Positions 44,106 to 62,132 of a stretch of DNA of 64,000 nt are shown here, piece after piece; position 1 is the first letter of the stretch; every line of letters begins with the position of its first letter. The DNA is taken from the NCBI RefSeq assembly GCF_019216885.1, contig NZ_JAAQRC020000001.1, positions 1,550,001 to 1,614,000 of the forward strand, in the 5' to 3' direction. The notes beneath the pieces were generated by a model that made no database searches, was not told the DNA's origin, and saw nothing but the letters and a program-made list of their open reading frames with translations. Origin of the DNA: Methylobacterium sp. SyP6R (GTDB lineage Bacteria; Pseudomonadota; Alphaproteobacteria; Rhizobiales; Beijerinckiaceae). The position numbers were made by a program, and so were the translations under genes.

Positions 44106-44431
44106 CGCGCCCCGCCTACGCCGTCGCCCATCTGCGCCGCGTCACCCTCGGCCCGGCGATCGCCACCTATCTCGCGCGCATCGACGCCACCCTGGCGCCG
44201 TTCGGTGGCCGCTTCCTCATCCACGGCGCCCGCCCCGAGCCGCTCGAGGGCGACTTCTCCGGCGACCTCGTCGTCATCGCCTTCCCGGACCGCGCCCGGG
44301 CCCGCGCCTGGTACGAGTCCCCGGCCTACCAGGCGATCCTGCCCCTGCGCACGACCCATTCCGACGGCGTCGCCTTCCTGATCGACGGCGTCCCCGCCGA
44401 CCACCGCGCCCCCGACGTCCTCGCCGGCTGA
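44102..44431 (+). CDS. DUF1330 protein
   Basis: The 109-residue ferredoxin-like fold protein contains PAYAVAHLRRV, GGRFLIHGARPEPLEGDFSGD and AWYESPAYQAILPLR, the DUF1330 signature. Possibly a small monooxygenase-like or stress protein; function not established. Last gene before tRNA-Pro. Confidence 0.85.
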   Translation: MTRPAYAVAHLRRVTLGPAIATYLARIDATLAPFGGRFLIHGARPEPLEGDFSGDLVVIAFPDRARARAWYESPAYQAILPLRTTHSDGVAFLIDGVPADHRAPDVLAG

Positions 44432-44503
44432 CGCCGCCGGCACGAAGGGGCTTGCGCGGACGCGAGCGCGGCGCTAATACCCCGCTCGCCCTCTCGGGGG
44501 CGT

Positions 44504-44581
44504 CGGAGCGTAGCGCAGCCCGGTTAGCGCACTAGTCTGGGGGACTAGGGGTCGGAGGTTCGAATCCTCTCGCTCCGACCA
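44504..44581 (+). tRNA. tRNA-Pro (GGG)
   Basis: A 78-nt cloverleaf including an encoded CCA. The 7-bp acceptor CGGAGCG/CGCTCCG with discriminator A, the anticodon stem CTAGT/ACTAG with loop CTGGGGG (anticodon GGG), and the T-arm GGAGG-TTCGAAT-CCTCT all form. Immediately downstream the base composition becomes AT-rich and phage- and IS-like, so it is a probable integration site. Confidence 0.95.
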
Positions 44582-45012
44582 TTAAAATCAAGCACTTAGC
44601 TGTTGATGCATGTGCTGGTGGCTTCCGGAGATCCGGGACTAGGAAGCCAATCGGAAGCCACAAGCCGAACTTCCTCTACAACGATAAGCTTGCCCACTGA
44701 ACGGTTCATGTGAGCTCAGTGGGCGCTCGTTTTTGGCTGATGCGCCTTGCTCTATAAAATTCGACGCCAAGCAGCTTCGAGCGCAGCCGACACGCACTTG
44801 CCGATCCTACCTGATCAGGCAGCCTGGATGCCGAGTGCGGCGCCAATCGAGCTAGCGACGCGCCCGGCTCGATAGCGGTCCACCGTCATTACAGTATGGG
44901 CGGGCCGCTTACACAACCATGCCATCAGCAGATGCAAGCCCCCCAGCGGCGCACTATCTCCGTTGTGTAGACATTATGCGGCAGTTTGCACCTTACACAG
45001 CCGCCTTTGCAT
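44582..45012. other. Gene-free AT-shifted gap after tRNA
   Basis: No frame is convincing. It contains GGAAGCCA direct/inverted copies (44,618-44,665) and the terminator at 44,692; it may be the remnant of an integrated element. Confidence 0.4.
44692..44735. terminator. Intrinsic terminator
   Basis: GCCCACTGA (44692-44700) pairs with TCAGTGGGC (44716-44724), followed by GCTCGTTTTT. The strongest U-tract terminator in the left part of the island. Confidence 0.75.
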
Positions 45013-45015
45013 TAA

Positions 45016-45874
45016 GAGCGCCTAACAGAACCGCTCGATCTGGCGGAGGGTGATGCGGCTGGCCTGCAGGACTGTGAAGGCCTCGTAGATGTCGGCGCGG
45101 CGCTCATAGCGGATGGGCAATCGGCGGGCGCGGTTGAACCAAGCGTGGCTGCGCTCGACTACCCAGCGATGCCGTCCGAGCCGGTCACTTCTCTCGATGC
45201 CGCGTCGGGCGATCCGCGGCCTGATCCCGCGTGCCCGGCACTCCTGCCGCCGCACGCGGGCATCGTAGGCCTTGTCGGCGTGCAACTTGTCGGGGCGCCG
45301 GCGCGGTCGTCCACGCCGCCCGCTGCGCACAGGCGGGATCGCGTCCAGCGTCGGGGCCATCAGCGGGCTGTCGTGACAATTGGCGCCGGTCAGAACGAGG
45401 CTGAGCGGCGTGCCGCGTGCGTCGGTGACGAGGTGGCGCTTGGTCCCCGCCTTGCCCCGGTCCGTCGGGTTCGGGCCGGTGGCAGCCCCCCTTTTTTCGC
45501 CGGCACGCTCGCGCTGTCGACGCTCGCTCGGCTCCAGTCGATCTCGCCCGCCGCATGCAGGCGTTCAAGCAGCACCTGATGCAGGCGCCGCCACACGTCG
45601 GCCGCTTGCCAATCGCGCAGCCGGCGCCAGCAGCTCATGCCGCAGCCGCAGTTCATCTCGGCCGGCAGCATCTCCCAGGGGATGCCCGAGCGCAGCACGA
45701 ACAGGATGCCCGTCAGGGCAGCCGATCGTCCAGCCGCGGACGCCCGCCCTTGGGGCGAGGCGGGTGCGGCGGCAGAAGTGGGGCAATCGCAGCCCAGAGA
45801 TCGTCGGGAAGAAGCGGGCGAGCCATACCAGACAACGCCCAACCGCGCCGATCGTGCCGTTCTGTTAGGCGCTC
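45016..45874 (-). mobile_element. IS5-family insertion sequence, 859 bp, transposase damaged
   Basis: Ends are inverted repeats GAGCGCCTAACAGAAC, flanked by TAA at 45013-45015 and 45875-45877. It has orfA/orfB with a 6-A, 6-G slippery run (45486-45497), but orfA carries an extra 1-nt loss near 45,722. It differs from the 38.7 kb copy, so it is a different IS. Confidence 0.87.
45022..45826 (-). pseudogene. IS5-family transposase, frameshifted
   Basis: OrfA starts at ATG 45826 (MARPLLPDDLWAAIAPLLPP) and should run into AALTGILFVLRSGIPW. After GRPRLDD the frame changes: the sequence reads DDRLP-stop, but one additional G would restore DDRAALTG. Further on the normal -1 slippery site links to orfB (to 45022), which ends ITLRQIERFC. 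So one accidental deletion disrupts orfA in addition to the programmed shift. Confidence 0.8.
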
Positions 45875-45877
45875 TAA

Positions 45878-46913
45878 ATGTACAATGGAGCCCTGTGCCG
45901 CGGCAGCGGCCAGCGCCAGAGACGATACTATTGGAGTAGAAAGGTCAGTAGAGGCGCGAACACTGCCCACTCAAATAAACTTGAGAAGGTATCGCAAGGC
46001 AGGCTCTCACGCGAAAAAATCGGCGCCGGCTGCAAACATGCAGCATAATACCTCTTGTATAAGGATTAAAAAATACACCGCTAATCACAGTTTCCGCTGC
46101 TTATTCGATAGCAATGCTGCCCAACCATTACCAATGCGCGGTCATAGCACCTTGTGGCCATTTGGGAATACGTAGCCATGCTTGGTGTACCGAAGCGAGC
46201 CTATCAGATAGGCTAGTGGCATCCCCGCCAGAACCCGTCGGCGCGCCACCACGGGCGCCTCCAAATTATGAGCTGTGCGCGAGAGCAGGATCTCGTCAAC
46301 CTTCACCGCATCTACAACCGGACGGCGTGGTGCTCCGGCAGCCGCATCCTGCTCACGCTTCTGATCTTCGCGCTCGCCCTATATAATGCGATAACGCTCA
46401 CCGTAGACAACATAATCGAGCAAATTGCGAGGTCGGCGCATCCGGGCGCGCCGCATCTATTGTAATCACACACACTTATCCGATGCCACTTCGGTAAAGC
46501 GAGTGGTTTGCGGTGTATTAGACTGATTTTACTTGCCCTTACCCCATAGTCGGATCTGTGGGCGACCATTCCTCACGGCCATGGAGCCGCCTTAGCATTC
46601 TTGCAAGGAGCCGGCAGCTCTAACAAAAGCTCGCTTAAGCCTGCCTTCGTCCTGGAGCTATACCCTCTACTACGGCACATGAACGGCTAATTTCGAGCTA
46701 AGGATATTAGCATAGCTCTCGTGAGAAGGCCTTTTCGATATTCGATACACATGCTAATGATGCCCACAAATCGATCAACGCTCGCTCGAAGTAACAAGAC
46801 ATGAACAATCTAACCCACCATAGAACCCAAAATAATTCGTCGAAGCAAGATTTGCCAAGCTAAGAACGGTCGCAAAAACATTACTTTTAGCAAAAATCGA
46901 GAATACGGAGCTA
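45878..46913. other. AT-rich 1-kb stretch without convincing gene
   Basis: Frames here are short and have no recognisable product; a 65-codon frame at 46,268-46,465 with one hydrophobic helix is the best but unconvincing. The region precedes the ATPase operon and probably holds its promoter. Confidence 0.4.
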
Positions 46914-46916
46914 GTG

Positions 46917-48872
46917 ATGCTTAAAAGTTGGGCCATTTCAAATTTTAAATCGTTCGGAGATAGAACTGAGATCGATCTTGCACCAATAACAGTGATAGCG
47001 GGGGCAAATAGTAGTGGAAAAAGTACTATTTTACAAAGTATCCTCCTCTTAAAGCAAACCGTGCAATATGTTCCGGTGAGTAGGGCGATAGGTCTTAATG
47101 GTCCTATATTAAAGCTTGGACGATTTGACGACATAAAAAACGCAACTAGTAAGTCAAATTCGATATCTCTCGAGTGGGAACTTACGGAAGTAGGTGCTTA
47201 TAAGCCGCAGGGCGGACAAGAAAATTTAGGTTTTATGTATTATGGTATGTACACAAACATAGACGTTGAGAATGTGAAGTACGGAATATCTTTTGCAGTT
47301 GATGACGATTTAAGTAGGGAGCAGTCATCAAGCGAAGGATTAAAAATAACAGGTGAGCTCAGGCAGCTCCAGCCGGTCCTTGAGCAGGTCTACGTCTACG
47401 CAGATTACCATAATAAAGATAACGATAATCGGTTTTTGAGCAGTGCGAGGCTAAAACTTAGTAGAAAATCAAGCGATATTATGAGCCACGACGAGAGCAG
47501 GACGGGATCTCACGAGGCAGCAAAACTCCTCAGCTATAAAATTGACTATATAGATAGCAGCACAAAGAGCGAAATCAGTCAGCAGCGCCCAGACCCTCGC
47601 CTATTGGGTGCAAACGTTCAACATTTTCTGCCTTATCAGATCGGCATGTCTTATAATAAGCGTCGAGACTTATCCTATAAGGCAGCCGTCGTCATAACTT
47701 CTACTCCGCACTCTCATCAGTATCAATTTGACAGAGAGGCTATCTCCGTAATAATCGATAGGGAAGTAGCACTGTATATTTTAGAAATTATTGAAGATAA
47801 GTTTGCACAAGAGAGTTTTCCTCAATTTCGTCCTAGCCCACATGCACGGTTAATCGAAGCTAAGCAGTCAGTGGTGGCCCGTAGCTATACGGCAGGTGAT
47901 TTTTCGGCGCTGCTAGATTCGACCTTAAGATGGCTTGATGCAAGAAGCCGCGCAGCTGTTAGGGCCACTCTGAATGATTGTTTGGTAAATATTCAAGAAA
48001 AAATTGGGCGATCGCTCGAACTCAGTACCGATATTGGATTTCAAGCAAGCTCGCCCAGAGTTATGTGGCATGTTGCTGATCAAGCAAATAATTTTTTCCG
48101 ACATTCTATAAGATATTTAGGTCCACTACGAGATGAGCCTAAGCCTATCTATCCGCTCGAAGCTGTAGCCAATCCAACAGACGTAGGCTACAAAGGAGAG
48201 CACACTGCCGCAGTTCTTGACTTAAATCGGGATCGTCAAGTTACCTACATTTCAAGCTCCAATGCGCAACTTCCTATTGGCGCGAGACCAATCACAACTT
48301 CTTTACATAGCGCAGTAGTGGACTGGCTCACCTATCTGGGTGTGGCAGAGGGAGTACGCACTAGTGATCTGGGCAAAATGGGACATCAACTTCAGGTAAA
48401 GACTGGAGGTATCGCCAAAGAGCACGACTTAACAAACGTTGGCGTTGGAGTTAGTCAGCTTCTGCCAATCATCGTCATGGCTTTATTATCTCCGATCCCA
48501 TCAACATTAATTTTTGAGCAGCCAGAATTGCACCTTCATCCAAGAGTTCAAACAAGATTAGCGGATTTTTTTATTAGTTTGGGTCTTTCCAGGAGGCAGT
48601 GCATCTTAGAAACTCACAGCGAATATATGATTGAGCGACTGCGGCGTAGGATTGCTGAAGCTGAAGAAGACCTTCTGCAATCAAGCATAAAAATATATTT
48701 TACTCATCGAGTAGAAGGAAATACCGTGTGCGAAGCGATCCAAGTCACAAAATATGGTGCAATAAAAAATTGGCCGCCAGATTTCTTTGACCAAAGCCAA
48801 GAAGAGACTGCTGAAATATTGAAAGCAGCTCAACGAAAACTAAAAATAGACCGACAAAATAGCAAGAAATAA
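46917..48872 (+). CDS. AAA15/OLD-like ATPase (DUF3696-type)
   Basis: The 651-residue protein starts MLKSWAISNFKSFGDRTEIDL with Walker A GANSSGKST (29-37), long insertion, and a C-terminal ABC-like region: LTNVGVGVSQLLPIIV (signature) and LIFEQPELHLHP (Walker B, Glu534-537), then ILETHSEYMI. This is the SMC/RecF-like ATPase of OLD and DUF3696 proteins, often found in phage-defence loci with an effector partner. GGAG six bases upstream chooses ATG 46917. The gene is AT-rich, unlike the chromosome. The next gene is 21 nt on. ATPase is firm; defence role is inferred. Confidence 0.88.
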   Translation: MLKSWAISNFKSFGDRTEIDLAPITVIAGANSSGKSTILQSILLLKQTVQYVPVSRAIGLNGPILKLGRFDDIKNATSKSNSISLEWELTEVGAYKPQGGQENLGFMYYGMYTNIDVENVKYGISFAVDDDLSREQSSSEGLKITGELRQLQPVLEQVYVYADYHNKDNDNRFLSSARLKLSRKSSDIMSHDESRTGSHEAAKLLSYKIDYIDSSTKSEISQQRPDPRLLGANVQHFLPYQIGMSYNKRRDLSYKAAVVITSTPHSHQYQFDREAISVIIDREVALYILEIIEDKFAQESFPQFRPSPHARLIEAKQSVVARSYTAGDFSALLDSTLRWLDARSRAAVRATLNDCLVNIQEKIGRSLELSTDIGFQASSPRVMWHVADQANNFFRHSIRYLGPLRDEPKPIYPLEAVANPTDVGYKGEHTAAVLDLNRDRQVTYISSSNAQLPIGARPITTSLHSAVVDWLTYLGVAEGVRTSDLGKMGHQLQVKTGGIAKEHDLTNVGVGVSQLLPIIVMALLSPIPSTLIFEQPELHLHPRVQTRLADFFISLGLSRRQCILETHSEYMIERLRRRIAEAEEDLLQSSIKIYFTHRVEGNTVCEAIQVTKYGAIKNWPPDFFDQSQEETAEILKAAQRKLKIDRQNSKK

Positions 48873-48893
48873 TTAGATGGGGTGCGTTGATCT

Positions 48894-49949
48894 ATGAAGC
48901 CGGTTGTAATTTTTGATGCAAGTCTGTTCGCGATACCTAACGCTGCCGAACAGCCCGCAGATATAGAACTCATTCTAGGCAGGATCAATACTTGGGCGGA
49001 ACGGACAGAGAAGCAAAACTGCGTTGATTTTGCTGTTTTAAGTGACATTATTGAAACATTAACATCGTCGAACTGCTTCCCGGCAACTCATAATATCCAG
49101 TCGCTACTCGATTTATATGAATTATCTCACGTATTTAGCGCGCATGAATTGAATGGTAGAATATTTAGCATTCTGAGCCGCTCCGATTACGTCCATGAGA
49201 TATTAAATATCGAAATAGGAGAAATTTGTACACCACTGTTGCCGGAAATCGATACCTCCACATCTCATAGTACCATACTCGTTGAAGCACTTCATAAGAC
49301 TATAGCTTCCGTTGTTACTTCTGCTAAAAAAGATATATCTCGGGTCGTAATAGGGTATCCGGCAAAAAAATCTGAAATTGACGTATCATTTGGCTACAAG
49401 TCATATATTGATAGCGAGAACAATTTTAATAAAATAGATGATTGGATTATGGTTGCGGAAAAAATTAAAATCGTAGATAACCCAGCTGAATTTCTGACAA
49501 GTCTCGATCCAGATGTCATGTGGAGCTATGCAGAAACAAGTGTGGAAATTAGCCTTTCTATAAATTTAAAAATAGCCTCAACCCTCAACATAAATATTGA
49601 TAAAATCCCCCTGTCTGCGCCTTACAGTTTTGTTGTTGGCACTGAATTTTTGTCGTCTCTACGCCGAAACCAAGCGTACGGTATCGCGCCGTTTTCTGCT
49701 ACAGTCTTGGAAAAATGCGTAGAGGCCGTAACGCAAACAAAGGGCACCTTCGTTCGAGATTTTAACATAAAACGCATCGCCGATGACGCCGACGGAAGAC
49801 GCATGCACATTACAAAAAGCCATGAGGCTCTGCGTCTGTTGTTTTGGGTAAAACAAAACAACATCGTCGAATTAGCAAACATTGGACCTAAAAACGAGCT
49901 AAAAATAGTGCCCGGCGATCACAAATTTGCTGTCCACGCAATATTTTAA
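48894..49949 (+). CDS. Unrecognised 351-residue partner of ATPase
   Basis: I do not recognise this protein. It begins MKPVVIFDASLFAIPNAAEQ, an early hydrophobic strand followed by Asp that is PIN-like in pattern, but no further acidic PIN residues are clear. The middle has ADIELILGRINTWAE, DISRVVIGYP and SFVVGTEFLSSLRR; the end is KIVPGDHKFAVHAIF. It is acidic, without membrane helices or signal peptide. It is co-directional with the ATPase (21-nt gap), equally AT-rich, so the two are one operon. Probably the effector or accessory of the ATPase. Confidence 0.7.
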   Translation: MKPVVIFDASLFAIPNAAEQPADIELILGRINTWAERTEKQNCVDFAVLSDIIETLTSSNCFPATHNIQSLLDLYELSHVFSAHELNGRIFSILSRSDYVHEILNIEIGEICTPLLPEIDTSTSHSTILVEALHKTIASVVTSAKKDISRVVIGYPAKKSEIDVSFGYKSYIDSENNFNKIDDWIMVAEKIKIVDNPAEFLTSLDPDVMWSYAETSVEISLSINLKIASTLNINIDKIPLSAPYSFVVGTEFLSSLRRNQAYGIAPFSATVLEKCVEAVTQTKGTFVRDFNIKRIADDADGRRMHITKSHEALRLLFWVKQNNIVELANIGPKNELKIVPGDHKFAVHAIF

Positions 49950-50145
49950 TTTATTATTACATAGAAAATACACTTAAAGTACCTGTGTAGAGATATGCGA
50001 TGAGGTAGGCGGCGTGGGACGCGATCAGGCGTTGATGGTCTTGAGCAGGGCTGTGAAGGTGCAAGTACCCAATAGGCAGCGATGTTGGCTACCGCGCGCA
50101 CGTCCGCATCGCTGACGGCCGTCCACATAGCACGATAGCTGTTTA

Positions 50146-50247
50146 TCAGCAGATACGAGCGCCAAGGTCGAGTGCAACGTAGGACGCCAACACCGCGATG
50201 ACGATGGAAAGCGCGGCGAAGGCGACGTTATAGCTGGTATTGACCAT
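50146..50247 (-). pseudogene. N-terminal fragment of MHYT-domain signalling protein
   Basis: Minus-strand ATG 50247 with AGGAAG upstream encodes MVNTSYNVAFAALSIVIAVL then ASYVALDLGARIC-stop (33 residues), matching the first helix of MHYT-domain proteins. The rest of a normal MHYT-GGDEF protein is absent; only the start survives. Confidence 0.6.
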
Positions 50248-50394
50248 GGGACTTCCTGCTGGTTATCAGATTAACCATGAAACAAAATCGCATTTATGTT
50301 GAATAAATCCCCTATTTTTGAATACAACGAGCGGTGCGGCACGCTGGCGAGAGTGCATGCTCGCGCCTCTTAGACCTGATTCGGCCGCATACCT

Positions 50395-50487
50395 TGCAAC
50401 GTGGTGATTCCTCGCATCGCTGCCAGCTGCGGGCTCGAGTAGGGACGTGGCGCCCTCTGCCCTCAGTTCCGCGGTTTTGCGCGCCAA
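50395..50487 (-). pseudogene. Short remnant of recombinase C-terminal module
   Basis: Minus-strand residues LARKTAELRAEGATSLLEPA resemble the segment LARDIAELRAEGATSLRKLA of the recombinase at 61,430-62,101. Similarity stops within about 25 residues, so it is a decayed fragment. Confidence 0.4.
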
Positions 50488-50496
50488 ATCTTTAGC

Positions 50497-50766
50497 TCAG
50501 TGCCTCGCCAGCCGGCGGACTACACCGAGGCGCTGGCGAGGGCTGAGCGATGGCGCTCGCCCTCCAATCCAGAAGCCGCGCGCTGCCAGACACCCTCGAC
50601 CGGGGCGCAGCACCGCGACCACCACATCCAGCCGGCGGGCGGCAGCCTCGAGCGCCACCAAGTCGGCGCCGCAGGCCTCGAACGTGCCGGTCACCAGCGC
50701 CTCACGCCGCCGGGCCTCACCCTCACCGATGCCGGCTTCCTCCGGGTCGCCTCGAGGTCTAAGCAC
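50497..50766 (-). CDS. Possible small hypothetical protein
   Basis: An 89-residue frame (GTG 50766, AGGGTGG upstream) reads VTGTFEACGADLVALEAAARRLDVVVAV, a plausible globular opening, and it follows the minus-strand operon below by 96 nt. No family is recognised; it may be spurious in this GC-rich DNA. Confidence 0.35.
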   Translation of the reverse strand: MLRPRGDPEEAGIGEGEARRREALVTGTFEACGADLVALEAAARRLDVVVAVLRPGRGCLAARGFWIGGRAPSLSPRQRLGVVRRLARH

Positions 50767-50862
50767 CCACCACCCTGGCGGCTTCAGGTCCCGGGCGGCG
50801 GCACGTCGGCCACCGATGGCGGGGCGAGGTCCGCGACCGCGGCGCCCGCCCGTTCAAGGCCT

Positions 50863-51381
50863 CTACGCGGCGCTAGCGAGCGCCTGACGTAGCAGCGCCA
50901 CCACGTCCTCATGCGCGGTCTCCGGCCAGTCGTTGAACACGGCCGGCCCGGCCATATCAGGCAGCAGGGCGCACAACCGGTCCTCAACGACGTCGCCGAT
51001 CGCCGGATCCTGGCCGGCCGCCCGATCGATGGCGCCTTCCAGGCTCCAAGCCACGGCCCGGGGGCTGGTGGGCGAGCACGGCCGCCCAACGGCATCCCGA
51101 GCACCTGCGCCGCGGCACCACCGCGCCGGGTCGGCGAGCAGGGCGATCATCCGGGCGATGACCTGGTGCGCCGCGACGGGGCTACGGTCCTCAAGCTCAA
51201 GGTCCCGGTCCCCACCACGCATCCACCCGACCTGCGAGCCGTACCCCTCGGGAGCGCCAAGCGACGGCTCGGCGTCGGCACCGTCCTCGAGGTCCGGGTC
51301 TTGGTCGAGCTGGTCAAGGATGCTGATGATGCGCTCGGCGGCCAGCTCGAGGCTGGCGCGCATGGTCGGGCTGACGGGCAT
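50863..51381 (-). CDS. Hypothetical protein, acidic
   Basis: The 172-residue product begins MPVSPTMRASLELAAERIISILDQLDQDPDLEDGADAEPSLGA-like acidic sequence; LDQDPDLEDG and EPSLGAPEG are segments seen in hypothetical proteins of rhizobia-like genomes. GGAG eight bases upstream. Second gene of the operon facing the XRE repressor. Confidence 0.65.
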   Translation of the reverse strand: MPVSPTMRASLELAAERIISILDQLDQDPDLEDGADAEPSLGAPEGYGSQVGWMRGGDRDLELEDRSPVAAHQVIARMIALLADPARWCRGAGARDAVGRPCSPTSPRAVAWSLEGAIDRAAGQDPAIGDVVEDRLCALLPDMAGPAVFNDWPETAHEDVVALLRQALASAA

Positions 51382-51399
51382 GTTATGTTCTCCGTTGGT

Positions 51400-51726
51400 T
51401 CAGTGGGTGGCGGCGCGGCGAGCGGCATGAGCCGCCGCCCAAGCGGTCTTGAGCCCGTGCGCCATCGCGGTGCGCCAGCAGCCGCGGGCGAGGCAGCCAT
51501 TCAGGACGGCACGAGCGTGGTGGACGGCGAAGGCCATGATGGCCCGGCGATCGAAGCCATCCGCCGCCGTCCAGAGCCCGGCCTTGGTGCCGCTCGCGGC
51601 CCGCAGGGCCTCCACCCTGGCGGCTTGCACGCTCTCCAGGTAGGCGCGGCGGGCCACCGCCGGCCGGCGCTCGGCCTGAAGCTCGTGCATCGCGATGGAC
51701 CAGGAGAGGGATCGGCACGCGGCCAT
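51400..51726 (-). CDS. Hypothetical protein controlled by operator
   Basis: The 108-residue helical, Ala-rich protein (MAACRSLSWSIAMHELQAER) starts at ATG 51726 with AGGTGA upstream. It faces the XRE repressor gene; operator site 1 lies 16 nt upstream of it. Function unknown. Next gene follows after 18 nt. Confidence 0.6.
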   Translation of the reverse strand: MAACRSLSWSIAMHELQAERRPAVARRAYLESVQAARVEALRAASGTKAGLWTAADGFDRRAIMAFAVHHARAVLNGCLARGCWRTAMAHGLKTAWAAAHAARRAATH

Positions 51727-51741
51727 GGGCGTTCACCTATT

Positions 51742-51756
51742 GGTGATAAAATCACC
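51742..51756. promoter_or_regulatory. Operator site 1 (GGTGATAAAATCACC)
   Basis: Perfect dyad GGTGAT-AAA-ATCACC, 16 nt upstream of the minus-strand operon start. Identical to site 2; six bases after it (ATATGA) also match. Confidence 0.8.
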
Positions 51757-51798
51757 ATATGAGGTGTAGCCGTCACTGGTTTGATGTCAACCTCTTAA

Positions 51799-51813
51799 GG
51801 TGATAAAATCACC
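51799..51813. promoter_or_regulatory. Operator site 2 over XRE ribosome site
   Basis: Second identical dyad, ending two bases before ATG 51816 and covering its AAGG ribosome site. It implies autorepression by the XRE protein. Confidence 0.8.
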
Positions 51814-51815
51814 AT

Positions 51816-52055
51816 ATGAAGCCATTTCAATCCCGCATGGCCCGGGCAGCACTCGCCTGGAGCACACAGGATCTCGCGCGAGAGGCCGAGGTTGGTGTAA
51901 ACACCGTTAACCGCTTCGAGGCGGGACAGGACGCGCGCGTGAGCAGCGTCGAAAAGATGCAACGGGCCCTGGAGAAGGGCGGCGTCGAGTTCATCCCGGA
52001 GAATGGCACCAGCATGGGCAGCGGTGCCGGCGTGCGGATGCGCGACAGCGGGTGA
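51816..52055 (+). CDS. Small XRE-type repressor
   Basis: The 79-residue protein is essentially a helix-turn-helix domain: WSTQDLAREAEVGVNTVNRFEAGQD, followed by VSSVEKMQRALEKGGVEFIPENG. It resembles prophage immunity regulators. The two operators, on both sides of the divergent promoter region, suit it as their binder. It likely controls the opposing operon. Confidence 0.82.
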   Translation: MKPFQSRMARAALAWSTQDLAREAEVGVNTVNRFEAGQDARVSSVEKMQRALEKGGVEFIPENGTSMGSGAGVRMRDSG

Positions 52056-52141
52056 CTGCCGGCGGTAGCCGGTCCAATCGAGGCTCAAAACAACAAATAA
52101 TTGACCCCCGAATTGCTCCGTAGGAAGCAGGACGCGAAAAT

Positions 52142-52318
52142 TCACACCTCAAAATTAGGCAGGTATTTTTCCACGAATTCTTCGACAATCTCATCTATGC
52201 TTCGACCTGTGGTTTCCGATAGATGCTCTAATTTACGAACGATCTCCTCATCAAGCTGGAGGCGAATTCTTCTTTTGTTGTGTTCCGTCACAACGCTCAA
52301 GTGGTTGTTCTCAGCCAT
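52142..52318 (-). CDS. 58-residue ribbon-helix-helix protein
   Basis: Minus-strand ATG 52318 (GAGGGGGAAC upstream) encodes an RHH: RRIRLQLDEEIVRKLEHL then TTGRSIDEIVEEFVEKYLP. It is a probable antitoxin- or Arc-like DNA-binding protein. No toxin gene adjoins. Its codons are more AT-rich than chromosomal genes. Confidence 0.65.
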   Translation of the reverse strand: MAENNHLSVVTEHNKRRIRLQLDEEIVRKLEHLSETTGRSIDEIVEEFVEKYLPNFEV

Positions 52319-52651
52319 TGTTCCCCCTCGCGCCTGGCCTAGGCGGCAAAGCAGTCTACTGAGCCAGCGGCCACGCTTGAAGTAGCGGCGGCAGCCCTAT
52401 AATGCGCTGCCGACCGAGAATTGCATTATGCTCTGATGGCTGCCGCTGGACAGTGAGTGGATGGGCGCCTAAGCCTTCATCCGAGGGCTGCTACGCTCTT
52501 GGTGGATGAGCGCATCGATCAGCCGCGCGCTCAATGACCGGACTACCGCACGCTCAACGGCCGGGGTCACCCGTGTCACAGCGCGTCGCATCGCATCGGC
52601 GGCAACCCGAACGACTGACGCGCTTCAGGCGCATCAGCGGAGCCATACGCG
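52319..52651. other. Gap without recognised gene
   Basis: Nothing supportable is seen; it separates the RHH gene from the small plus-strand gene. Confidence 0.4.
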
Positions 52652-52831
52652 ATGACAACCACCTCAGCTCAGAACCGTGACCGTGAACACGCCGTCCTCT
52701 CGGCGGTGACCGCGGCCTTCGTCTACTCGGACCACCTCTCGGGCAAGGCCCGGATCGGGGGCCTATCCGACGATGACGCGCGCCGCCTGCTGGCGGAGGC
52801 CCGGGAGGCTCAGGCGCGCCTCGCCGGTTGA
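52652..52831 (+). CDS. Possible 59-residue helical protein
   Basis: ATG 52652 (GCGGAG upstream) opens a frame MTTTSAQNRDREHAVLSAVTA and ends DDDARRLLAEAREAQARLAG. The acidic helical pattern is plausible for a small phage protein. The strong hairpin follows 33 nt after its stop. Confidence 0.5.
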   Translation: MTTTSAQNRDREHAVLSAVTAAFVYSDHLSGKARIGGLSDDDARRLLAEAREAQARLAG

Positions 52832-52863
52832 GGTACAGGCCGCGGCCAGGGCTCGGCCTTCTA

Positions 52864-52900
52864 CGATCCCGAAACGATTGAGGACATCGTTTCGGGATCG
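52864..52900. terminator. Strong bidirectional terminator
   Basis: CGATCCCGAAACGAT (52864-52878) and its perfect inverse (52886-52900) form a 15-bp stem with a 7-nt loop, 36 nt past the end of the leftward tail-gene block and near the convergent small gene. Confidence 0.8.
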
Positions 52901-52935
52901 TTCGGGGATCGGTACCCCAACAAGAGCGCCGGGGC

Positions 52936-53493
52936 TCAAACCACTCCGGTATCGACAGCGTCAATGTTGAACGAGAGGTAGTGCCCGCCAATCTTGTCCT
53001 CGCCACAGAGGATCGGGATGCGGGTACCGATCTCCACCGTGTTCTTCGGTGGACCCAGGTAGTGGGACTTCTTCTCGTCCTTGTCCCTGTTGTCGCGCTT
53101 CGGCGTGTTGAACATCTGGAGGATGCCACCGATTACCAGCATGATGCCAAGCTTCATCAAGATCGGCGCGAAGGTCGGCATGACCGGACCAAGAACGAGG
53201 CTCGCCGCGATCAACACGGCCCCGATGACGATCTGGAAGAAGCCCCCGTTCTTGCCACCGTTGAGCTGAGGGAAGATGTGGATGTCCTGGGCGTCGGTCG
53301 GAGCAAGTAGGCTCTCCAGGGTCTCGTGCCCGACCACCTTGACCCGCAGGGGGCCGGTGATCGCGTTGCCGCCGAAACCAGGCAGCTGCCGGCTGATCGC
53401 CTTCAGCGCCTCGGCGACAGTCGACGCACGGATTTCGATCGGCTCAGGATGGATGCTCTTCAAAGAGCCGTGAAGATGAATACGCCGCAGCAT
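52936..53493 (-). CDS. Phage tail assembly protein (lambda I-like)
   Basis: The 185-residue product begins MLRRIHLHGSLKSIHPEPIE with VAEALKAISRQLPGF, then two glycine-rich hydrophobic segments (90-125), as in lambda tail assembly protein I. It ends with a hydrophilic domain. It starts 4 nt after the tape-measure stop. In lambda the tail-tip J gene follows; here a terminator follows instead. Confidence 0.75.
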   Translation of the reverse strand: MLRRIHLHGSLKSIHPEPIEIRASTVAEALKAISRQLPGFGGNAITGPLRVKVVGHETLESLLAPTDAQDIHIFPQLNGGKNGGFFQIVIGAVLIAASLVLGPVMPTFAPILMKLGIMLVIGGILQMFNTPKRDNRDKDEKKSHYLGPPKNTVEIGTRIPILCGEDKIGGHYLSFNIDAVDTGVV

Positions 53494-60433: not shown

Positions 60434-61111
60434 TCAGGCTCCGATCCGGGCCAGGGTCCGGCTCACCGCCATCGGTGACCAGGTGGTGCCCCGAGGCGGG
60501 GCGATGCCGGCCCGGTTCAGGCCAGCCGCCAGGGCGCGGAGGCTTGTGGCCCCGGACGCGCGCAGCTCGCCGATGATCGGGGCGAGGTCGGTGGCTCGGG
60601 CTTCGGCCCGGGCCTGGACAGCGGCAACCCCCTTCACCTTGGCTTCGGTGGAGAGGGTGGCACCCCGGTCACCCCCGAGCTTCACCCCGTGCGCCTTCGC
60701 TGCCGCGAGCGCGGCCTTGGTGCGGGCCGAGATAGCGCGGCGCTCCTCCTCCGCGACCATAGCCATCACCCCGACCGTGAGCCGGTTGGCGTTCGGCATG
60801 TCGGCGGCCACGAACTCGATGCCGGCCTTCTCCAGCCCGAGAAGGAAGCCGGCATCGCGGCTGAGCCTGTCCAGCTTCGCGATGAGGAGCTTGGCCCCAT
60901 AGACCCGGCACGCCGCGATGGCGCGCTGTAGCTGAGGCCGGTTCGTGTCGGACTTGCCGCTCTCCACCTCCACGAACTCGCCGGCCACCGTCCAGGCCCC
61001 ACCGTTCAGGTAGTCCGTCACCGCCCGCTGCTGCGCCTCCAGGCCAAGGCCGCTGTCGCCCTGACGCTTGGTGGAGACGCGCAGGTAGGTGACGAACTTG
61101 CCCTGAGCCAC
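60434..61111 (-). CDS. Serine recombinase (resolvase/invertase-type)
   Basis: The 225-residue protein has intact catalytic motifs: FVTYLRVSTKRQGDSGLGL with nucleophile Ser in RVST, LLIAKLDRLSRD, AADMPNANRLTVGVMAMVAEEER and the SARTKAAL helix. The C-terminal module LAPIIGELRASGATSLRALA is DNA-binding. GTG 61111 with AGGGG upstream. A perfect inverted repeat lies 9 nt upstream. Probably catalyses integration, resolution or inversion. Confidence 0.88.
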   Translation of the reverse strand: MAQGKFVTYLRVSTKRQGDSGLGLEAQQRAVTDYLNGGAWTVAGEFVEVESGKSDTNRPQLQRAIAACRVYGAKLLIAKLDRLSRDAGFLLGLEKAGIEFVAADMPNANRLTVGVMAMVAEEERRAISARTKAALAAAKAHGVKLGGDRGATLSTEAKVKGVAAVQARAEARATDLAPIIGELRASGATSLRALAAGLNRAGIAPPRGTTWSPMAVSRTLARIGA

Positions 61112-61119
61112 GGCCGAAC

Positions 61120-61165
61120 CCCTGTCACGAACCAATCATCGAACGTCGATTGGTTCGTGACAGGG
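61120..61165. promoter_or_regulatory. Perfect 18-bp inverted repeat upstream of recombinase
   Basis: Bases 61120-61137 are the exact inverse of 61148-61165, with a 10-nt centre. It lies 9 nt from the GTG of recombinase 1, so it is an operator or a recombination site. Confidence 0.75.
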
Positions 61166-61429: not shown

Positions 61430-62101
61430 TCAGCCCTCAATCCGCTCGAGCACCCGCTGCACGGCCGTTGGGGTCCAGGCCGCACCTCGACGCGTAGTAA
61501 GCCCTCGCCGGTTGAGGCCGGTCGCCAGCTTGCGCAGGGACGTGGCGCCTTCGGCTCGCAACTCGGCGATGTCACGCGCCAGGGTCTCGGCCCAGTGACG
61601 GGCTTTGGCCGACCGCACCGAGGCGCTGACGGCGGCGGCTCGCCTGGCCTGAGCCGGGAGGTGGTGGTGGGTCGGGCCGCCGAGCTTCACGCCCTGCTCT
61701 TTCGCGGCAGCGAGCGCGGCCTTGGTGCGGGCCGAGACCGCCGCACTTTTCGCCTGCGCCACCTCAATCATGGTGTGGATCGTCATCCTGTTGGCTCCGG
61801 GCATATCGACTGCAATGAAATGCACCCCCGCCCGCTGAAGCTCCTGGAGGAAATAGACATCATCCGACCGCCGGGCCAGCTCGGCGATGACCAGCGTAGC
61901 ATCGTCACGGCGACAGAGCTGAATGGCCTCAGCCAACTTCGTCCGGGTAGCCCGCCTGCCGGTCTTGACCTCCACCACCTCTACCTCAGTCACTAAGTAC
62001 CGCTGATCGTCGTTCAAGAAGTCAGCCACGGCCCTGCGCTGCGCGTCCAGCCCGGGGCCGGAGGTGCCTTGCAGGTAGGTAACGAACTGGCCCCTGGCCA
62101 T
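61430..62101 (-). CDS. Degenerate serine-recombinase-like protein
   Basis: The 223-residue protein matches recombinase 1 throughout, but the catalytic N-terminus is FVTYLQGTSGPGLDAQ instead of FVTYLRVSTKRQGDSGLGLEAQ-type, losing RVSTKRQ, and DRLSR is replaced by ARRSDD. The SARTKAALAAAKEQGVKLGG helix and C-terminal module (LARDIAELRAEGATSLRKLA) are kept. It probably binds DNA without recombining. ATG 62101. Confidence 0.8.
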   Translation of the reverse strand: MARGQFVTYLQGTSGPGLDAQRRAVADFLNDDQRYLVTEVEVVEVKTGRRATRTKLAEAIQLCRRDDATLVIAELARRSDDVYFLQELQRAGVHFIAVDMPGANRMTIHTMIEVAQAKSAAVSARTKAALAAAKEQGVKLGGPTHHHLPAQARRAAAVSASVRSAKARHWAETLARDIAELRAEGATSLRKLATGLNRRGLTTRRGAAWTPTAVQRVLERIEG

Positions 62102-62132
62102 GGCTTGGTACTCCACCCTCAACGTATCACCA

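What the first reader, a model, noticed from the sequence alone, without database searches (positions are those of the whole stretch)
46917..49949. AT-rich two-gene ATPase plus unknown-partner operon next to tRNA-Pro
An OLD/AAA15-type ATPase (Walker A, signature, Walker B visible) is followed after 21 nt by a 351-residue protein I cannot assign. Both are AT-rich in a GC-rich genome and lie in a tRNA-associated island with IS and prophage genes. ATPase-effector pairs of this kind are frequent in phage defence (PARIS, Septu, Abi systems), but the partner does not look like AriB, PtuB or RloB.
Basis: partly seen in the sequence, partly recalled or inferred. Interest (0 to 1): 0.85.

Follow-up and report, generated by a model that had tools for sequence, protein, structure and literature searches.

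The report
ATPase plus RelE-like nuclease defence pair
A prophage-like element carries a rare, tightly linked pair of genes, an ATPase and a protein whose tail is predicted to fold like the bacterial RNA-cutting toxins RelE and YafQ; it is probably an anti-virus system that stops protein synthesis in infected cells, a combination I did not find described.

The parts
44504..44581 (+). tRNA-Pro(GGG); its last 48 nt (44534-44581) are the likely attL. The likely attR (98% identical over 48 columns, last 25 nt exact) lies outside the window at 66217-66264 in window coordinates
45016..45874 (-). IS5-type insertion element (split transposase, terminal inverted repeats, TAA target repeat) between attL and the operon; bystander, does not break the operon
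   Evidence: sequence; Pfam DDE_Tnp_1_2 and DUF4096
46917..48872 (+). OLD/AAA15-type ABC ATPase (651 aa) with C-terminal DUF3696; predicted sensor and gate
48873..48893 (+). 21-nt intergenic gap; in 12 of 12 other loci measured the genes overlap by 4 to 23 nt (first possible start codons, or the annotated ones)
48894..49949 (+). partner (351 aa): predicted effector, N-terminal PIN-like and C-terminal RelE/YafQ-fold domains; matches phrog_25609 (function unknown)
48894..49502 (+). PIN-like domain, residues 1-203; D8 kept in 15 of 20 members
49617..49904 (+). RelE/YafQ-fold domain, residues 242-337; R303, H305, R314, W318, G331, K333 conserved

Best explanation
A two-gene, mobile-element-borne anti-phage (abortive infection or phage-exclusion) module. 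The OLD/RecF-like ABC ATPase senses an infection cue and normally holds the partner inactive. On triggering, the partner's C-terminal RelE/YafQ-fold domain enters the ribosomal A site and cleaves mRNA, shutting off translation. The N-terminal PIN-like domain is mostly non-catalytic and serves to dock on the ATPase or bind RNA. Shown here by computation: the operon, ATPase class, strict pairing, mobile and defence settings, the two predicted folds, and where conservation lies. Inferred: defence, gating by the ATPase, and ribosome-dependent mRNA cleavage.
Confidence: 0.55

Rival explanations
1. The PIN-like domain is the working endoRNase and the RelE-like domain only binds RNA or the ribosome or helps assembly; the pair is then an instance of the OLD-ABC/PIN pairs reported in BREX loci.
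Against: D8 is N or S in 5 of 20; in the N-domain only one other column is acidic in at least 15 members (position 85, 17 of 21); 13 of 16 best-kept positions lie at 242-338.
Confidence: 0.2
2. A toxin-antitoxin-like addiction module that keeps mobile elements in place, the ATPase acting as antitoxin; any phage effect is secondary.
For: RelE-type fold; found on a conjugative Acetobacter plasmid between two copies of an IS5 transposase gene, on prophages and in the window's integrated element.
Against: P2 hotspot and BREX embedding; in the analogous PARIS pair either gene could be deleted without toxicity (PMC9122126, passage).
Confidence: 0.13
3. The C-terminal domain is ParE-like (acts on gyrase) rather than an mRNA interferase.
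Against: YafQ scores higher in both lists, and basic residues are conserved at RelE's catalytic places, which ParE lacks (recalled).
Confidence: 0.08

Closest known systems
Nsn (PADLOC-DB candidate system, models NsnB and NsnC)
   Same: The ATPase's best PADLOC hit is NsnB (4.6e-72). A DUF3696 ATPase in a same-order genome (L006) is followed by an NsnC protein (8.7e-90). A 13-member NsnC alignment runs end to end with the partner (columns 28-341 to 1-345) and ends on a like pattern: H 13/13, R 12/13, then G-x-K/H 13/13.
   Different: No NsnC model is listed for the partner at E<=1. hhalign NsnC against partner: probability 0.85%, P 0.065, score 20.9 against at most 17.1 in 40 shuffles; NsnC against RelE/ParE and YafQ: 0.5% and 0.2%. 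So kinship is suggested, not shown. The ATPase next to the L006 NsnC falls outside the partner-bearing branch. My searches found no paper on Nsn.
PARIS (AriA/AriB)
   Same: Two-gene layout, OLD-type ABC ATPase with an effector gene, in a phage-satellite defence hotspot (PMC9122126, passages); an AriA model hits the ATPase (1.6e-30).
   Different: AriB is a DUF4435/Toprim tRNase (PMC9122126, PMC12409363, passages); the partner has no DUF4435 or Toprim hit and a different predicted fold.
OLD-ABC paired with PIN, HNH or PD-(D/E)XK nucleases in BREX loci (PMC12839542)
   Same: ATPase type, setting within BREX operons, a PIN-like domain.
   Different: RelE, ParE, YafQ, YoeB and HigB do not occur as whole words in that paper's main text; its supplements could not be read here, so overlap with its PIN set is possible.
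Cami1 (CRISPR-associated RelE-type protein)
   Different: Cami1 is gated by cA4 bound to a CARF domain (title and recall); here the N-domain is PIN-like and an ATPase is encoded beside it.
RelE/YafQ type II toxins
   Same: Predicted fold and spacing of basic residues.
   Different: Fused to a PIN-like domain, paired with an ATPase gene, no significant sequence similarity.
HEC-03 (PADLOC candidate)
   Same: DUF3696 ATPase followed by a coupled small gene.
   Different: Shorter ATPase (469 aa) and a different partner (HEC-03A, 177 aa) in L013.

Membership tests
OLD/AAA15-type ABC ATPase (DUF3696 branch) | AAA_15/AAA_21 match, Walker A, signature, Walker B, C-terminal DUF3696 | tested here: met
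PARIS | AriB-type DUF4435/Toprim partner | tested here: not met
   no Pfam, PADLOC or NCBIfam family listed for the partner at E<=1
PARIS | OLD-type ATPase gene beside an effector gene | tested here: met
Septu / retron Ec78 PtuAB | PtuB HNH partner and PtuA-grade ATPase | tested here: not met
   ATPase 26 bits against a cut-off of 500 for NF041760; partner no hit
Nsn | NsnB-type ATPase | tested here: met
   PDLC03878 4.6e-72, the best of 123 models matched; PADLOC gives no cut-off here
Nsn | NsnC-type partner | tested here: inconclusive
   no model listed; end-to-end but non-significant profile alignment
RelE/YafQ mRNA interferase superfamily | RelE-type fold | tested here: met
RelE/YafQ mRNA interferase superfamily | significant sequence-profile similarity | tested here: not met
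RelE/YafQ mRNA interferase superfamily | basic catalytic residues at RelE positions | tested here: inconclusive
   conserved and spaced alike but mapped without superposition; 2 of 21 differ
RelE/YafQ mRNA interferase superfamily | ribosome-dependent mRNA cleavage | not testable with these tools
   needs biochemistry
PIN endoRNase | PIN fold | tested here: inconclusive
PIN endoRNase | conserved acidic active site | tested here: not met
   D8 in 15 of 20; acidic at 85 in 17 of 21; no other N-domain column acidic in 15 or more
Prophage / integrative element | att repeats at a tRNA and an adjacent integrase | tested here: met

The most novel reading that the evidence does not exclude
A family of immune modules in which an OLD-type ABC ATPase, not a small antitoxin, controls a PIN-RelE fusion that cuts mRNA on the ribosome; the candidate Nsn system would belong to the same broad family, so that DUF3696 ATPases form a sensor platform with exchangeable RNA-cutting effectors, also recruited as a back-up arm inside BREX.
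Probability: 0.4. Interest if true: 0.78.

Novelty: new variant of a known kind. Interest (0 to 1): 0.64.

Why it matters
It proposes an effector type for a protein family without annotation (phrog_25609), ties it to a defined branch of DUF3696 ATPases, and places it in two established defence settings. If right, it joins the OLD-ATPase immune systems to the RelE toxins and gives a testable case of a ribosome-targeting toxin gated by an ATPase. It also gives a concrete hypothesis for the candidate Nsn system.

Tried and rejected
Pfam, NCBIfam and PADLOC scans of the partner listed nothing at E<=1; 13 members against Pfam gave five families, each in one member, best E 0.01. hhalign against RelE/ParE and hmmsearch against PDB sequences were not significant. 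Foldseek against viral models had no match below 0.001, nor had either Foldseek search of the PDB. No Toprim, HNH or OLD chain is among the rows shown by VIA; this does not exclude such kinship. The downstream proteins of ten lower-scoring ATPase loci showed no clear kinship to the partner (best 5.7 bits). Literature searches: DUF3696 with defence, none; DUF3696 alone, one unrelated paper; NsnB, NsnA/NsnC and 'PIN-RelE', nothing relevant in the lists. 'RelE' as a word start also matches 'release', so the lists are inflated; of the papers listed there I searched five by passages or more (PMC12839542, PMC10568477, PMC10853773, PMC8297831 with 'RelE' as a whole word, none found; PMC9252829 and PMC12409363 by word start only), and left the others unopened. 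RelE with AriA and phage gave two papers on toxin-antitoxin systems, seen as a listing only. An Rfam scan of 44400-53000 found only the tRNA. Rarity counts are lower bounds: the PHROG profile hit 1 of 385 class genomes, the window's own, while the ATPase query on a class sample of the same size led to two more with divergent partners. The L002 contig holds only a partner tail near a contig end and was not counted.

Full report
What is there. The ATPase gene runs 46917-48872 (651 aa), the partner 48894-49949 (351 aa), same strand, 21 nt apart. Their GC is 0.43 and 0.41 in a window of 0.69. The ATPase matches AAA_15 (5.6e-26), AAA_21 and, at its end, DUF3696 (1.8e-10), and carries Walker A, signature and Walker B motifs. 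No Pfam, NCBIfam or PADLOC family is listed for the partner at E<=1, but it matches the phage family phrog_25609, of unknown function, as do all 13 members first aligned.

Where it sits. tRNA-Pro(GGG) ends at 44581. Its last 48 nt recur at 98% identity 21.7 kb downstream, at 66217-66264 in window coordinates, just outside the window; the last 25 nt are exact and, at up to 2 mismatches, occur only at these two places in the genome. A tyrosine integrase gene (64886-66076, minus strand) lies beside that copy, and a phage tail tape-measure gene and two resolvase genes lie between. So the pair belongs to an integrated prophage-like element, 2.3 kb inside the likely attL, with an IS5-type element between.

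How common and how linked. The partner is rare: 7 proteins, then 11 with a profile, the window's own included, in a database of 5.8 billion (in one search only the 7997 best candidates were scored). The only hit in 61 related genomes, in 397 of the order and, with the PHROG profile, in 385 of the class was the window's own genome. It is in 1 plasmid record of 72,556 and 12 near-identical Klebsiella phage records of 50,697. At DNA level 2 of 5426 E. coli genomes match the Klebsiella pair, over 18% of the query in the ATPase gene; both carry the whole pair. These counts are lower bounds: the ATPase query found two more class members with divergent partners. Linkage is strict. I took 29 separate loci with an ATPase hit. 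All 11 that score 430 bits or more with my ATPase profile, the window included, have the partner directly downstream; none of the 18 that score 288 bits or less does. Caveats: the cut was set after seeing the gap; the profile (14 ATPases) includes three of the 11; among the 18, L024 and L033 end at the ATPase so that the place is not visible, and L028, L029 and L030 look like near-copies. Six of the 11 were found by the ATPase alone. In 12 of 12 other loci measured, two of them the E. coli loci added later, the genes overlap by 4-23 nt. With 15 pairs, ATPase and partner distances correlate at r = 0.861, 0 of 5000 permutations as high, and partner-bearing ATPases are one side of a branch with modest support (80/87; one change in 84% of 200 bootstrap trees; the program warns of long branches among the short-form rows). 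For that test I left out L011 (its ATPase is split over two frames), L085 (its partner is the same as L084's), duplicates, and L029, L032 and L033; four of the 15 pairs were matched only by equal contig length.

Defence settings. In two E. coli genomes the pair lies between the P2-type replication endonuclease (followed by two small genes, one DinI-like) and the portal gene. In a Klebsiella P2-like phage (L035) and one viral contig (L018) it lies between a GPA gene and a portal gene, confirmed by Pfam (in L035 another open frame lies before the portal gene); L019 looks the same by eye. PMC9122126 (passages) states that the region between gpA and gpQ of P2-like phages holds old and tin in phage P2 and is a hotspot of genetic diversity with anti-phage systems. 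In two alphaproteobacterial genomes the pair lies inside BREX operons: BrxF-BrxC-PglXI-pair-PglZ (G504) and BrxC-PglXI-pair-BrxHI, with PglZ just beyond on the same contig (G509). A conjugative Acetobacter plasmid carries it too.

Active-site reasoning. Over 21 members, 16 positions are kept in at least 19, and 13 of them lie at 242-338. R303, L315, W318 and F252 are invariant; H305, R314, N329, G331 and K333 are kept in 19 of 21; D8 in 15 of 20. In E. coli RelE the recalled catalytic residues K52, K54, R61 and R81 are at those positions in the fetched gene, and YafQ has H50, H63, D67 and H87. R303-x-H305 ... R314 ... G331-x-K333 lines up by spacing and secondary structure with K52-x-K54 ... 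R61 ... G79-x-R81; this is my reading, not a superposition. The two BREX-embedded members (L010, L011) have D, H and H at the places of H305, R314 and K333, the last like YafQ H87; whether they are active is open. The uneven conservation of D8 argues that the PIN-like part is not the main catalyst.

Mechanism. By analogy with PARIS, where the AriA hexamer sequesters AriB and frees it on sensing a phage protein (PMC12409363, passages), I propose that the ATPase senses infection and releases or activates the partner, whose RelE-like domain stops translation. Supported by computation: pairing, setting, folds, conservation. Inferred: gating, substrate, defence.

Known or new. The ATPase's best PADLOC hit is NsnB. 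A same-order DUF3696 ATPase (L006) is followed by an NsnC protein (8.7e-90). Thirteen NsnC-type proteins align end to end with the partner and finish on a like pattern (H 13/13, R 12/13, G-x-K/H 13/13), but the score (20.9 against at most 17.1 in 40 shuffles; probability 0.85%) only suggests kinship, and NsnC against RelE/ParE is not significant either. One NsnC model hits 18 of 339 genomes of the phylum. PMC12839542 (section 35 part 1) reports OLD-ABC ATPases paired with HNH, PD-(D/E)XK or PIN nucleases in BREX loci, together 594 taxa; RelE and four kindred names do not occur in its main text, and its supplements were not readable here. So this is a new variant of a known kind: an OLD-ATPase/effector module with a PIN-RelE effector. 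I found no paper that describes it, within an open-licence library only and with most listed papers unopened.

Noticed in passing
L013:6001-8629 and L014:6001-8619: In an Aeromonas and an Azotobacter plasmid a short-form DUF3696 ATPase is followed by a small gene (HEC-03A in L013) and then an RNA ligase gene (Pfam RNA_ligase 2.2e-33 in L013; by annotation in L014); an RNA ligase beside a putative RNA-cutting pair is suggestive.
   Followed up: partly
L008, L015, L022, L023, L025, L026, L027, L028, L031, downstream of the ATPase: Other DUF3696 ATPases are followed by coupled genes that look different from each other: short proteins that read like PIN (L026, L027, L031), ones with an HKD-like motif by eye (L008, L028), and L022's with a weak YafQ match (E 0.038). 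Pfam gives none of them a match over its cut-off. The ATPase may be a platform with exchangeable effectors.
   Followed up: partly
window 60434-61135 and 61430-62122, minus strand: Two tandem resolvase-type recombinase genes; the second lacks a six-residue stretch near the N-terminus where the catalytic serine is expected (recalled), so it may be inactive.
   Followed up: partly
window 44534-44581: The tRNA-Pro 3' end may be an integration hotspot in the genus: several relatives show further 37-46 nt near-perfect copies (for example G012:C95, G022:C185, G019:C1:818039).
   Followed up: no
L011:939-2844: The BREX-embedded ATPase of G504 is split over two overlapping frames, while its partner is one open frame; a sequencing error or a true lesion.
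   Followed up: no
window 46000-46900: About 0.9 kb of comparatively AT-rich sequence between the IS element and the ATPase start has only short open frames, which I did not scan against protein families, and no Rfam match.
   Followed up: partly
L012:6780-13437: On the Acetobacter plasmid the pair lies between two copies of the same IS5 transposase gene in opposite orientation (same protein accession), a possible composite transposon.
   Followed up: no
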